Notes under the pieces: model-generated
What the model was told of the DNA's origin: nothing
Databases searched by the model: none
The model's input: the letters and a program-made list of their open reading frames with translations, nothing else
Made by a program: the position numbers and the translations under genes
Part shown: in pieces, positions 6,968-63,891 of the stretch
How positions within the stretch are numbered: position 1 is the first letter of the stretch
How the letters are laid out: each line of letters opens with the position of its first letter
Assembly (NCBI GenBank): GCA_030432295.1
Contig: JAUIHI010000027.1
Location: 1-64,000 of the forward strand
Length of the DNA stretch: 64,000 nucleotides
Direction: 5' to 3'
DNA from: Anaerolineae bacterium
GTDB taxonomy: Bacteria > Chloroflexota > Anaerolineae > Caldilineales > Caldilineaceae

Positions 6968-7050
6968 TTTAACCACAAAGACACAAAGACACAAAGAAAA
7001 AATTCTTCTTTCTTTGCTTTTCTTCGTGCCTTTGTGTCTTTGTGGTTAAA
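6968..7050. repeat. Inverted CACAAAGA-unit hairpin element
   Basis: Three tandem 8-bp units (CACAAAGA) on the left are mirrored by TTTGTGTC units on the right. The outer arms 6968-6988 and 7030-7050 are exact inverse complements, with an A/T-rich centre. It fills almost the entire spacer between two glycosyltransferase genes, starting right after the upstream stop codon. Related copies lie at 40727-40777 (arms again perfect), 35690-35770 (degenerate), and inside the coding frame at 57621-57647. Confidence 0.93.
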
Positions 7051-21305: not shown

Positions 21306-21349
21306 TGATCAGAGATGCATTCAGCTTCAAATAGCAGGGATTCCTGAAA

Positions 21350-21404
21350 AAGTGAAACGTGAAACGTGAGATTGTTGGACCCTCTCACGTTTCACGTTTC
21401 ACTT
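21350..21404. repeat. Inverted GTGAAAC-heptamer hairpin
   Basis: Tandem GTGAAAC units on the left (21350-21371) are mirrored exactly on the right (21382-21404), with a 10-base centre. It lies 35 bp past the ygeW-like stop and probably ends that operon's transcript. A degenerate relative lies at 25765-25817 and a half-copy at 42661-42679. Confidence 0.93.
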
Positions 21405-21438
21405 TATTCACAGCGTCGCTACCCTACGCAGCACCCTC

Positions 21439-22469: not shown

Positions 22470-22543
22470 CGACGACGGACGAAAGAGGAAGGACGAACCA
22501 ATTTCGCTATACGTTTGTCTTTTCTCTTTCGCCTGTCGTCGTT
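22470..22543. repeat. GACGACGG-type hairpin overlapping the carbamate kinase 3' end
   Basis: The left arm (22470-22493, GACGACGGACGAAAGAGG) lies in the spacer and the right arm (about 22519-22543, CTCTTTCGCCTGTCGTC) lies within the last codons of the carbamate kinase gene, so the stop codon sits in the loop. It is related to the perfect 33-bp-armed element at 49558-49626 (shared GGACGAACCAATT-type centre). Confidence 0.85.
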
Positions 22544-40726: not shown

Positions 40727-40777
40727 AACCACAAAGGCACAAAGAAAGATGTGTTCTGCCTTTGTGCCTTTGTGGTT
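40727..40777. repeat. Perfect CACAAAGGCACAAAG hairpin
   Basis: AACCACAAAGGCACAAAG (40727-40744) is exactly mirrored at 40760-40777. It lies between argD and the ArgA-like gene, 19 bp after the argD stop, with the next ribosome-binding site only about 10 bp beyond. Same family as 6968-7050. Confidence 0.94.
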
Positions 40778-40804: not shown

Positions 40805-41404
40805 ATGGCTGTCGCGATTCGTCAGGGCCAACCGGGGGATATTCCGGAATTAGTAGAGATGATCAATGGCTTTGCGGGCCGCAATCTGATGTTGCCCCGC
40901 ACGCCGGAAGCTGTGATGAAGACCCTGCCCGACTGGCTGGTGGCGGTGGAGCGGGAGACAGACGGCACGGAAAGCTTGCTGGGCTGCGGTTCGCTCGTCG
41001 CCCTCACCCCGGAACTGGCCGAAGTGCGCTCGCTGGCCGTCCACGAGCGGGGACAGGGCAAGGGTGTGGGCAGTACGGTCGTGGAAAATCTGGTGGCCCT
41101 GGCCAAGGCTCGTGAGTTCAGCCAGGTCTGCGCACTGACCCTGCGCGAGGAGTTCTTCCAGCGCCTCGGCTTTGAAATCGTAGACCGCTGGAGCATCAGC
41201 CCGAAGCTCTGGCAGGAGTGCATCTACTGCCCCAAATTCCACCGCTGTGACGAAGTGGCAGTGGTGAAATATCTGACCGTCCGCCGCCCGGAAGAGGCCG
41301 GCCCGGGTAAGCACGTCGCAGCCAATCCCCTGCTCAAATGGCAGGCCTGGCAGCCGCTGAAGCTGGCCTATTCCTATAAACCGATCCATCTGCACGAGGA
41401 ATAG
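40805..41404 (+). CDS. Short GNAT-type N-acetylglutamate synthase (ArgA-like)
   Basis: A 199-residue acetyltransferase of the GNAT fold with the acetyl-CoA loop SLAVHERGQGKGVGSTVVENL. The C-terminal block LREEFFQRLGFEIVDRWSISPKLWQECIYCPKFHRCDEVAVVKYL matches the short stand-alone N-acetylglutamate synthases used for arginine biosynthesis in many bacteria. Its place after argC-argB-argD and before carA, and the absence of argJ in the cluster, support a role making N-acetylglutamate from acetyl-CoA and glutamate. Start ATG 40805 follows AGGAGAAAAA. Confidence 0.88.
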   Translation: MAVAIRQGQPGDIPELVEMINGFAGRNLMLPRTPEAVMKTLPDWLVAVERETDGTESLLGCGSLVALTPELAEVRSLAVHERGQGKGVGSTVVENLVALAKAREFSQVCALTLREEFFQRLGFEIVDRWSISPKLWQECIYCPKFHRCDEVAVVKYLTVRRPEEAGPGKHVAANPLLKWQAWQPLKLAYSYKPIHLHEE

Positions 41405-41480
41405 TCATCAGTCATCAGTAATCAGTCATCAGTTGGTGTGCGTAAAGCCACTGATGACTAATTACTGATGACTGATGACT
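41403..41480. repeat. Inverted AGTCATC-heptamer element
   Basis: Four AGTCATC-type 7-bp units (41403-41434) are mirrored by four units on the right (41448-41480), with a 13-base centre. It starts inside the stop region of the ArgA-like gene and fills most of the spacer to carA. The two arms are nearly perfect inverse complements apart from one inserted base-pair region. Confidence 0.93.
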
Positions 41481-41508
41481 GTTCACTCCCACTGTACGGA
41501 GTCTTTGA

Positions 41509-49557: not shown

Positions 49558-49626
49558 GACGACAGACGACAGACGGAGGACCAACCAGTTCCGAATTGGT
49601 TCGTCCTCCGTCTGTCGTCTGTCGTC
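49558..49626. repeat. Inverted GACGACA-heptamer palindrome (33-bp arms)
   Basis: GACGACAGACGACAGACGG... (49558-49590) is mirrored, with only two mismatches, by 49594-49626. It separates two convergent SDR genes and may serve as a bidirectional terminator-like hairpin. The centre (GGACCAACCAGTTCCGAATTGG) resembles that of the element at 22470-22543. Confidence 0.94.
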
Positions 49627-57128: not shown

Positions 57129-58325
57129 ATGAACGAGACAATTCTCATCCTGGCCGACGACCTGACCGGCGCAGCGGATACGGCTTCCCGCTGTCGGGCC
57201 GCGGGTCTGTCGGCCACAATTTTCCTCACACCGCCCCAGCCGCCCCTACCCGCGGGCGTCGTCGCCTTCACCTCCGATTCCCGCCACCTGCCGCCAGCCG
57301 AAGCAGCTCAGCGGGTACGAGAAGTCGCTGAGCCGCTCGTCGAACAGTCTGTCCTCTGGTACAAGAAAATCGACTCCACCCTGCGCGGCAATATCGGCAG
57401 TGAGTTGGATGCGCTGCTGGACCTGTTGGAGGCACCCGCCGCGCTGGTCTGCCCCGCTTTCCCGGCCCAGGCGCGGGGACTGGTCAACGGCCATCTGGTG
57501 GCGCCGGGTGGCCCGCCAGTGGGCGTGCATCTGCCGTCCCTGCTGCGGGAGCAGAGCCGCCATCCGGTGCTATCGTTTTCGTTGGAGGATGTACGATCCG
57601 GGGAACTGGCAGAGCGATTTCAACGCAAAGGCGCAAAGGTGCAAAGCGGTGTCCTGAGCCAGTCAAAGGGGGGAAAAGGGGGGAAGGAACGGTCGATTTT
57701 TGTGGTGGATGGAATGACGGACGAGGATTTGGGGCTGATTGTGGACGGGGCCGCGACACTTCCGGGTCTGCTGCTCTGTGGCAGCGCGGGGCTGATTGGG
57801 GAGGTGGCGAAACGACAGGGAAAGGGCAAAGACCTGCCAGGTTTCGGAAAACCTGGCAGGTCTGACGGCAACGCGCTCGTTGTTGTGGGCAGCGGCAGTC
57901 CGATGGCCCACCAGCAGATCGACGGGCTGTTGTCCGCATTTCCCGACGCGGCGCGGGTAGTCATTGAAGCGGATAATCGCTCGTCTGTGGCATCCACTCA
58001 CCCGCTCGTCCTCATTCACCAGCCCCGGCCCGCGCCCGGCGCAGTGCTGGACGGCCCCGAAGCCCGGCGAAGGGCCAATCTTCTGGCCGACGCGGCTCTG
58101 GCACAGATTGGGCAAAAGCCGCCGGACCTGCTGTTCCTTGTGGGGGGAGACACCGCCGTGGCCGTCCTCTCCCGTCTGGGCGTGGAGCGGCTGACTGTCG
58201 AACGCGAACTGTTGCCGGGGATGCCACTTTGCACGGCGACGGTCAATGGACACACGCTGCGAGTGGTAATGAAGCCAGGGAGTTTTGGGGACGAGAATGC
58301 GCTGGTAGAAGCGCTGGAGCGTTGA
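57129..58325 (+). CDS. Four-carbon acid sugar kinase (DUF1537/OtnK-DtnK-like) with two repeat-derived insertions
   Basis: A 398-residue kinase. The N-terminal domain shows ILILADDLTGAADTASRC and WYKKIDSTLRGNIGSELDALLD with VCPAFPAQARGLVNGHL; the C-terminal domain shows LVVVGSGSPMAHQQI and DLLFLVGGDTAVAVLSRLGV ... PLCTATVNGHTLRVVMKPGSFGDENAL. It phosphorylates D-threonate, D-erythronate or similar acids for the PdxA2-like dehydrogenase. Two segments do not belong to the family: residues about 165-191 (QRKGAKVQSGVLSQSKGGKG...) begins with the CACAAAGG-like intergenic repeat and residues about 235-245 (DLPGFGKPGRS) are a perfect copy of the TTTCGGAAAA palindrome. The reading frame stays open. 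Start ATG 57129. Confidence 0.9.
   Translation: MNETILILADDLTGAADTASRCRAAGLSATIFLTPPQPPLPAGVVAFTSDSRHLPPAEAAQRVREVAEPLVEQSVLWYKKIDSTLRGNIGSELDALLDLLEAPAALVCPAFPAQARGLVNGHLVAPGGPPVGVHLPSLLREQSRHPVLSFSLEDVRSGELAERFQRKGAKVQSGVLSQSKGGKGGKERSIFVVDGMTDEDLGLIVDGAATLPGLLLCGSAGLIGEVAKRQGKGKDLPGFGKPGRSDGNALVVVGSGSPMAHQQIDGLLSAFPDAARVVIEADNRSSVASTHPLVLIHQPRPAPGAVLDGPEARRRANLLADAALAQIGQKPPDLLFLVGGDTAVAVLSRLGVERLTVERELLPGMPLCTATVNGHTLRVVMKPGSFGDENALVEALER
57621..57647. repeat. CACAAAGG-like repeat inside a coding region
   Basis: CAACGCAAAGGCGCAAAGGTGCAAAG has the same unit spacing as the CACAAAGGCACAAAG intergenic hairpins, with G for A at some places. It lies in the DUF1537 kinase gene and is in frame. 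The inverted partner arm is absent. Confidence 0.7.
57831..57862. repeat. Perfect 32-bp palindrome inside a coding region
   Basis: GACCTGCCAGGTTT / AAACCTGGCAGGTC around CGGA is identical in its inner 28 bases to the terminator-like palindrome at 55083-55126. It lies in frame within the DUF1537 kinase gene (residues about 235-245), where it could form a strong mRNA hairpin. Its length, 32 bp, is not a multiple of three, so one extra target or flanking change was needed to keep the frame. Confidence 0.93.
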
Positions 58326-58347
58326 AACGTTTGAACGCTCCAGCGCT
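58310..58347. terminator. Hairpin at convergent gene ends
   Basis: AGCGCTGGAGCGTT (58310-58323) and its inverse (58334-58347) form a stem that contains the DUF1537 kinase stop codon (58323-58325) and ends 4 bp before the stop of the convergent aminotransferase gene. No long T-tract follows, but TTTATCACTTT is present. Confidence 0.8.
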
Positions 58348-58350
58348 TTA

Positions 58351-60671: not shown

Positions 60672-60738
60672 TTCGCTGCGTGCTACGTGCTGCGTGAGAT
60701 CACCATCCGATCTCACGCAGCACGTAGCACGCAGCTTT
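60672..60738. repeat. Inverted TGCTGCG/GTGCTAC-heptamer hairpin without a gene
   Basis: GCTGCGTGCTACGTGCTGCG (about 60673-60692, plus GTGAGAT) is mirrored perfectly by ATCTCACGCAGCACGTAGCACGCAGC on the right, with a centre of about 10 bases. The arm structure is the same as that flanking the four-helix-bundle gene at 62104-62592 (arms at 62115-62133 and 62603-62626). Confidence 0.94.
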
Positions 60739-62103: not shown

Positions 62104-62592
62104 CTAGTTGATAGGTGCTGCGTGCTGCGTGACAGTCGAGTCATCGACAGTGTACGTGGGATTCGTGTTGTATGGAACGGTATCTTCTTTCAGGTTTTGT
62201 TGGCGTTGATCAGAAAGCATTGTGAGTAGGAGGCGGATAATACTGGTCAGTTGTCCGCATCGGTGATCTGTGACAGCTTGGCCCAAAATGTGACGACCGG
62301 CATAATACCAGTTGCGTGCTTCCCTGGCCGAGCCAAGCGCATATTCGTAGTACCGGGCGCGATCTCTACCAGAGCTTTTGCTGTAGCCTTCCGCCAGATT
62401 CGCGCCTATCGAACCAACGGAGCGATATAGTTGATCTGCCAGACTTTTCATACGTGGATCGTTGCTGAGCTTGCTTACATCAGCCCAGCAAATATCTACG
62501 CAGAAAAGAGCCAACCGATACGCTTGCAGCCGCCAGAGAGGGTCATCTGTCAAATATCCCGGTACAGACTTTTCCCACTCCTCATACGTCAT
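62104..62592 (-). CDS. S23-type four-helix-bundle protein, flanked by inverted heptamer arms
   Basis: A 162-residue protein of the four-helix-bundle (S23/IVP-like) family: LQAYRLALFCVDICWADVSKL, SLADQLYRSVGSIGANLAEGYSKSSGRDRARYYEYALGSAREARNWYYAGRHIL and LTSIIRLLLTMLSDQRQ. These proteins are encoded as stand-alone genes or inside 23S rRNA intervening sequences and resemble the Avd protein of diversity-generating retroelements. Here no rRNA is near. ATG 62592 has a GAGGTGA ribosome-binding site that is the end of a TGCTGCG repeat arm; the C-terminus (TVTQHAAPIN) is read from the opposite arm. Mobility as a repeat-bounded cassette is inferred. Confidence 0.88.
   Translation of the reverse strand: MTYEEWEKSVPGYLTDDPLWRLQAYRLALFCVDICWADVSKLSNDPRMKSLADQLYRSVGSIGANLAEGYSKSSGRDRARYYEYALGSAREARNWYYAGRHILGQAVTDHRCGQLTSIIRLLLTMLSDQRQQNLKEDTVPYNTNPTYTVDDSTVTQHAAPIN
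62115..62133. repeat. Left TGCTGCG heptamer arm of the S23-gene element
   Basis: GTGCTGCGTGCTGCGTGAC holds two heptamer units and lies over the last codons of the four-helix-bundle gene. The right arm (62603-62626) is its inverted partner with three units. Confidence 0.88.
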
Positions 62593-62602
62593 CCGTTTCA
62601 CC

Positions 62603-62626
62603 TCACGCAGCACGAAGCACGCAGCA
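62603..62626. repeat. Right TGCTGCG heptamer arm of the S23-gene element
   Basis: Three inverted heptamer units (read on the minus strand: TGCTGCG TGCTTCG TGCTGCG, then TGA) lie 10 bp upstream of the four-helix-bundle start codon and reach the last codons of the MDR dehydrogenase gene only 4 bp away. Confidence 0.88.
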
Positions 62627-62629
62627 TTC

Positions 62630-63640: not shown

Positions 63641-63891
63641 CTGATTTCAATTCCTTTGCAGGGGAGTGGATATAGGATATTGGGTATTGGATATTTCGGA
63701 TTCGGTCACCATCTGCTCACTCACAAATATCTACTACCCAATACCTGCGTTCTCCTCAAATGGTGTCATTTTCCGGGCAATTTGTCAATCCAGAGATTCG
63801 GCCCCATTGCGCGATTACCGGGGCGCTTCTATAATAACCTATCTGCACGGGCAGACGGAGTGAAAACCAGTGGAATAGGGGAGGCAGATTT
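63641..63891. other. Divergent spacer with an inverted AATACCC-type element
   Basis: The 251-bp gap between the MDR gene and the right-end isomerase gene holds a degenerate hairpin (63673-63746) and no gene I can support. Promoters for both flanking genes should be here; I do not see a convincing pair of boxes. Confidence 0.6.
63673..63746. repeat. Inverted GGGTATT/AATACCC element
   Basis: AGGATATTGGGTATTGGATATTT (63674-63696) pairs imperfectly with AAATATCTACTACCCAATACC (63725-63745). The GGGTATT/AATACCC unit equals that of the 11-copy array at 127-203, showing both direct and inverted arrangements of one unit in the same chromosome. Confidence 0.75.

What the first reader, a model, noticed from the sequence alone, without database searches (positions are those of the whole stretch)
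62104..62626. Four-helix-bundle (S23-like) gene bounded by inverted heptamer arms, with a gene-less sister hairpin about 1.5 kb away
The gene is flanked by TGCTGCG arms in inverted orientation, whose right arm supplies its ribosome-binding site and whose left arm supplies its C-terminal codons. The hairpin at 60672-60738 has the same arms without a gene. This pattern suggests a small mobile element: full-length copies carry the four-helix protein, and short copies are non-autonomous derivatives. S23/Avd-like proteins bind nucleic acid and act with reverse transcriptase in known systems, so a role in hairpin-repeat spread is conceivable.
Basis: partly seen in the sequence, partly recalled or inferred. 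Interest (0 to 1): 0.78.

Follow-up and report, generated by a model that had tools for sequence, protein, structure and literature searches.

The report
Mobile hairpin gene with seven-letter arms
A small protein gene of unknown purpose, long known only as a passenger inside some bacterial ribosomal RNA genes, turns out across many bacterial phyla to sit between mirror-image arrays of seven-letter DNA words; the gene and its arms behave as one tiny mobile element, which links three puzzles that had been studied apart.

Summary
The window gene (62104-62592, minus) is an S23/23S-rRNA-IVP four-helix-bundle gene between inverted heptamer arms; a gene-less hairpin with the same words lies at 60675-60735. 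In the window's class, 69% of 97 S23 genes have inverted flanking arms against 2% of 305 similar-sized ORFs; across Bacteria 67 of 79 exceed the 99th percentile of random positions, mostly as period-7 arrays. Arm words differ between loci but follow the S23 protein lineage (permutation z about 12), so arms and gene travel together. Orthologous empty sites exist for several elements in the genus, including this one, and at 90-98% identity in cyanobacterial plasmids; one shows a 5-bp target duplication. At some sites a gene-less word hairpin replaces the S23 copy. Insertions sit at the stop codon of a co-directional gene. S23 is under strong purifying selection (dN/dS 0.03-0.14). The genome lacks any RVT_1 reverse transcriptase, and Y1 transposases carry different repeats, so neither proposed enzyme is supported. 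Best reading: a foldback-like mobile element, of which the 23S rRNA intervening sequence is the known rRNA form, with S23 probably recognising its own arms. The mobilising chemistry is unknown.

The parts
62104..62592 (-). S23 / 23S-rRNA-IVP four-helix-bundle protein gene (162 aa, ATG at 62592-62590)
   Evidence: PF05635 52 bits, TIGR02436 58 bits; AlphaFold model pLDDT 86.6 matches S23 structures 2gsc Z 17.1 and 2rld Z 16.7; dN/dS 0.07 against the orthologue in G005
62602..62626 (.). 5' arm of the element (upstream of the gene on the minus strand): heptamer array CTGCGTGCTTCGTGCTGCGTGAG, starting just after the stop codon of the dehydrogenase gene
   Evidence: inverted match to the other arm 17/18
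62115..62132 (.). 3' arm of the element: heptamer array overlapping the last codons of the S23 gene
   Evidence: 18/18 identical in the orthologous element of G005
62598..62604 (-). Shine-Dalgarno-like GAGGTGA straddling the inner edge of the 5' arm
   Evidence: read from sequence
62113..62628 (.). whole inserted element; sister species G006 and G003 carry about 10-15 nt of plain intergenic DNA here
60675..60735 (.). gene-less sister hairpin, same words, 27-nt perfect arms, 7-nt loop

Best explanation
A compact foldback-like mobile element: two inverted arrays of a 7-nt (sometimes 8-nt) word enclosing a single S23 gene. SHOWN: arms and gene form one unit that is inserted and absent at orthologous sites; the words follow the S23 lineage; gene-less hairpins with the same vocabulary are abundant in this genome and can occupy the same sites; insertions sit at the stop codon of a co-directional gene; the S23 protein is kept by purifying selection. 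INFERRED: the S23 protein, probably a pentamer as the five-chain crystal structures of its relatives suggest, recognises its own word array or the hairpin formed by the two arms in single-stranded DNA or RNA, and by doing so lets the element and matching gene-less hairpins be copied into new sites with host enzymes; keeping this function in place would explain the constraint on resident copies. The known 23S rRNA intervening sequence would be the rRNA-inserted form. UNKNOWN: which enzyme cuts and joins, and whether the intermediate is DNA or RNA.
For: Arms around 69% of 97 S23 genes against 2% of 305 ORFs; 67 of 79 loci across Bacteria above the 99th percentile of random positions (15.6), best period 7 in 63 of 67. 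Protein-word correlation r 0.29, permuted maximum 0.08, n=131, non-syntenic pairs from different genomes. One site carries two different S23 lineages in sister species, each with its own words. Empty sites in the genus and in cyanobacterial plasmids, with GTAAT duplicated at one. Gene-less hairpins at orthologous sites. Word hairpins 37.5 per Mb in G000 against 0 in 400 kb of G033 and 0 in 316 kb of four S23-free genomes. Insertion at the stop codon, 90 of 108 co-directional. dN/dS 0.03-0.14. Coxiella 23S IVS: 28-bp stem and tandem heptamers GACAGAT before its S23 ORF (PMC4990558).
Against: No recombinase, nuclease or polymerase motif is known in S23, and no enzyme was identified. Covariation of word and protein shows co-travel, not binding. 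A clean target duplication is seen at only one site; other empty sites are too diverged or give an ambiguous duplication. Strong constraint on resident copies is unusual for a purely selfish element. Some S23 genes (genus g8, Cytophaga) show no clear arms. In Coxiella the S23 protein is reported as probably not synthesised in vivo (PMC4990558).
Confidence: 0.6

Rival explanations
1. The heptamer hairpins are the mobile or self-expanding unit (slippage, fold-back synthesis or another system), and S23 genes are cargo that lodges in hairpin loops, as in rRNA loops.
For: Gene-less hairpins far outnumber S23 copies; one site has a gene-less hairpin in G000 and an S23 copy in G005; rRNA IVSs replace tetraloops (PMC4990558).
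Against: Words follow the S23 lineage across unrelated sites and phyla, and two S23 lineages at one site carry different words. No word hairpins were seen in 316 kb of S23-free genomes. Deletion derivatives such as Nostoc C052 pC052_E show loss from S23 copies.
Confidence: 0.2
2. Spread through RNA: the transcribed hairpin with S23 bound is reverse-transcribed or reverse-inserted, in the way Avd assists a DGR reverse transcriptase.
For: Sense orientation with host genes, position at stop codons, rRNA-inserted members, and the Avd-like fold (8ub8 Z 13.7, 4dwl Z 13.2).
Against: No RVT_1 in G000 (0 candidates, 9 S23 genes) or in G014, G016, G017, G020, G058, G060, which carry 5-8 S23 genes each.
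Confidence: 0.15
3. Not mobile in practice: S23 and its hairpin are a host regulatory cassette in operons (for example an mRNA-binding autoregulator), inherited vertically and lost often.
For: Purifying selection in place, conserved arms (about 90% against 79% in spacers), operon position and orientation.
Against: Recent presence/absence between near-identical plasmids, with a target duplication at one site; very different host genes; the same S23 lineage at many unrelated sites.
Confidence: 0.15
4. The arms are REP sequences moved by the genome's Y1 (RAYT) transposases.
For: Y1 genes are present in most genomes with arms and absent in genus g8, whose S23 genes largely lack arms.
Against: Y1 genes are flanked by ordinary palindromes with different sequences, not word arrays.
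Confidence: 0.06

Closest known systems
23S rRNA intervening sequences (IVS) with S23 ORF (Coxiella, Leptospira)
   Same: S23 gene inside a stem formed by inverted ends, about 430 nt; Coxiella has up to three tandem heptamers before the ORF (PMC4990558)
   Different: These copies sit at protein-gene junctions, in many copies per genome, with lineage-specific words and gene-less derivatives; RNase III excision not tested
Heptameric G-rich repeats of Xanthomonas (GGGANTN)n and Nostoc GGGGA(C/T)T; cyanobacterial STRR repeats
   Same: Same period and similar words; 70 inverted convergent pairs reported in X. campestris (PMC4692102)
   Different: The authors found no link with mobile elements and do not mention S23
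Drosophila foldback (FB) elements
   Same: Inverted ends made of short tandem repeats around a loop that may hold a gene (from general knowledge)
   Different: Eukaryotic, much longer, unrelated protein; analogy only
REP/BIME sequences with RAYT transposases
   Same: Autonomous gene copies flanked by hairpins plus many gene-less hairpins
   Different: Y1 enzyme and conserved palindromes instead of S23 and word arrays
DGR accessory protein Avd
   Same: Same fold (Z 13-14)
   Different: 5-6% identity, no reverse transcriptase in the genome; template and variable repeats were not looked for

Membership tests
S23 / 23S rRNA-IVP protein family (PF05635, TIGR02436) | profile score above curated cut-off | tested here: met
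   52.3 bits against 33.8; 57.7 against 24
S23 / 23S rRNA-IVP protein family (PF05635, TIGR02436) | GxxRxxxSxxxNxxE-type motif and four-helix bundle | tested here: met
   Q54, S61, N65, E68 invariant, R57 nearly so; model matches 2gsc and 2rld
23S rRNA intervening sequence | S23 ORF within inverted ends | tested here: met
23S rRNA intervening sequence | location inside a 23S rRNA gene | tested here: not met
   lies between a dehydrogenase gene and a Lar_N-like gene; so it may work like an IVS but is not a 23S IVS
23S rRNA intervening sequence | excision by RNase III | not testable with these tools
   needs RNA work
REP/RAYT | Y1 transposase gene between REP palindromes | tested here: not met
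   gene is S23; Y1 loci carry different repeats
DGR (Avd) | reverse transcriptase in the genome | tested here: not met
   no PF00078 hit in G000
Transposable element (general) | precise presence/absence with target-site duplication | tested here: inconclusive
   presence/absence clear at many sites; GTAAT duplication at one, ambiguous at others

The most novel reading that the evidence does not exclude
A previously unrecognised, domain-wide class of mobile elements whose only protein is a non-enzymatic-looking S23 bundle that reads lineage-specific heptamer arrays, that has generated many of the heptameric repeats and in-operon hairpins of bacterial genomes, and of which the 23S rRNA IVS is one branch.
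Probability: 0.45. Interest if true: 0.92.

Novelty: new variant of a known kind. Interest (0 to 1): 0.8.

Why it matters
It gives context to an abundant orphan family (S23, 'four helix bundle protein'), suggests an origin for heptameric repeats reported in Xanthomonas and cyanobacteria without explanation, and accounts simply for S23 genes noted in cas loci (an insertion between cmr2 and cmr3). If S23 proteins recognise their own words, the family would be a large natural set of sequence-specific nucleic-acid binders, directly testable by swapping arms and proteins.

Tried and rejected
Reverse transcriptase partner and Y1/RAYT partner: not supported. Arms determined by the site: rejected, since one site carries two S23 lineages with different words. 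Chance or base composition: rejected by random segments, swapped flanks, real ORFs and the reversed-pattern control. First alignment A1 was too diverse for a collection scan, so A2 was used, which biases the bacteria-wide sample to one S23 branch. The swapped-flank control in that sample is inflated (99th percentile 26, median 9.5) because the words recur across phyla, so the random-position control was used there. One antisense shadow ORF (L094) and a short entry (L076) were dropped from the final correlation. Open-access searches found no paper linking S23 to heptamer arrays, but most subscription journals and preprints are not covered. VIA-align matches to pectin methylesterase inhibitors (Z 13.6) tie with Avd, so the Avd link by fold alone is weak; PMC10053308 cites a structural alignment of Avd with 2GSC.

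Full report
OBSERVATION. The minus-strand gene at 62104-62592 is an S23/23S_rRNA_IVP protein. It lies between inverted heptamer arrays at 62115-62132 and 62602-62626, and a gene-less hairpin with the same words lies at 60675-60735. The heptamer TGCTGCG alone is only mildly enriched in the window (32 against 18.3 expected), but the 22-nt array occurs 31 times in the genome with up to 2 mismatches against 0 for the reversed pattern.

GENERALITY IN THE GENOME AND CLASS. The genome has nine PF05635 genes. On inspection eight of the nine have obvious inverted word arrays, mostly with different words, and the ninth (L157) has a matching but distant right arm. PF05635 occurs in 45 of 61 related genomes. 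For 98 S23 genes the best local alignment of upstream flank to reverse-complemented downstream flank has median 19.0, against 9.5 for swapped flanks and for random segments; 69% exceed the 99th percentile of the controls. Against 305 ORFs of 300-900 nt: 69% versus 2% above the same threshold (Fisher p 4e-45).

GENERALITY IN BACTERIA. Eighty S23 loci from many phyla were fetched. Of 79 testable, the median score is 22 against 10 for random positions; 67 exceed the 99th percentile (15.6), and 63 of these have best period 7. The shared profile in this branch is close to T-A/G-G-G-G/C-A-G. In the window's class periods 7 (50 elements) and 8 (21) dominate. The query biases this sample to one S23 branch.

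WORDS FOLLOW THE PROTEIN. Between non-syntenic elements in different genomes, S23 identity correlates with arm 4-mer similarity (r 0.28, permuted maximum 0.07; combined set of 131: r 0.29, permuted maximum 0.08; the window's class against other Bacteria: r 0.17, permuted maximum 0.10). The site of L153 carries a GACGGC-word S23 in G000 and an AGTGAAC-word S23 of another lineage in G006 and G004. So arms belong to the element, not the site. This shows co-travel; binding is inferred.

MOBILITY. The window's element is absent from the orthologous gap in G006 and G003 and present in G005; G001, G002 and G004 hold other genes there. Further empty sites occur in the genus for L152, L153 and L154. 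Two sites show a gene-less word hairpin where a sister species has S23: a histidine kinase gene (70-nt hairpin in G000:C6, S23 copy in G005) and the L071 site. In cyanobacterial plasmids the empty state is seen at up to 98% identity: Trichormus variabilis plasmid C against Nostoc linckia, Fremyella and N. carneum plasmids, with GTAAT on both sides of the insert and once in the empty site. A deletion derivative (Nostoc C052 pC052_E) and, at another site, a gene-less hairpin of about 220 nt (Nostoc ATCC 53789) were seen. Four further junctions are filled or empty in relatives, and S23 lies between cmr2 and cmr3 in Picosynechococcus PCC 7003 but not PCC 7002, which offers a simple account of S23 in cas loci (PMC3936711).

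POSITION. Of 108 elements with a near upstream neighbour, 90 follow a co-directional gene (control 490 of 707, Fisher p 0.003). The arm starts at a median of -1 nt from that gene's stop codon. Twelve frame readings (in 11 elements) stay open through the whole element, including three inside long host ORFs of the window's class.

GENE-LESS HAIRPINS. In 400 kb of random G000 sequence 15 word hairpins were found (37.5 per Mb), most with words matching known S23 arms; none in 400 kb of G033, whose S23 genes lack clear arms, and none in 316 kb from four S23-free genomes. The sample of S23-free genomes is small and lineage effects are possible.

SELECTION. Orthologous S23 pairs in place have dN/dS 0.03-0.13, and cyanobacterial pairs at different sites 0.10-0.14. 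Arms of orthologous elements are about 90% identical against about 79% in spacers (pooled, leaving out one pair with large inserts).

MECHANISM. The window protein models as a four-helix bundle (pLDDT 86.6) like 2gsc and 2rld, with a weaker match to DGR Avd. G000 has no RVT_1 reverse transcriptase. Its Y1 genes carry ordinary REP palindromes. I therefore favour S23 as the arm-recognising factor of a foldback-like element moved by host enzymes, with confidence about 0.6; the chemistry is not shown.

KNOWN RELATIVES. The Coxiella IVS, a 428-nt S23 element in 23S rRNA with a 28-bp stem, has up to three tandem heptamers before its ORF (PMC4990558), so I regard it as the rRNA form. Heptamer arrays in Xanthomonas and Nostoc were described without a link to S23 (PMC4692102). 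No open-access paper found here joins these. Because IVSs are already known as S23-bearing selfish elements, I rate this a new variant of a known kind, with a real chance that it deserves a class of its own.

Noticed in passing
63668-63745: Second gene-less word hairpin near the element (TATTGGGTATTGGATATT...AAATATCTACTACCCAATA); many genus-wide copies appear, and the same words form the arms of an S23 gene in G020 (L110).
   Followed up: partly
21349-21405, 22470-22541, 41399-41484, 49558-49626, 58309-58348, 6968-7050, 40727-40777: Other gene-less hairpins in the window whose arms look like degenerate 7-8 nt word arrays.
   Followed up: partly
L189, L193, L198: Y1 (RAYT-like) genes flanked by REP palindromes of the type GTAGGTGCGGTTT..AACCGCAC, a separate repeat system in the same genomes.
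   Followed up: partly
L292, L293, L291, L290: The same gene junctions that hold S23 elements in one species hold what look like toxin-antitoxin or DUF433-like gene pairs, or REP pairs, in sister species: shared landing sites. Gene identities read by eye, not searched.
   Followed up: no
L074-site orthologues L281, L290, L291: One-sided word arrays (TGACCCAATCACCCAATC...) that also encode the N-terminal residues of the next protein, without an S23 gene or left arm.
   Followed up: no
L303: S23 copy in G005 at the L152 site broken by another repeat-like insert, arms retained.
   Followed up: no
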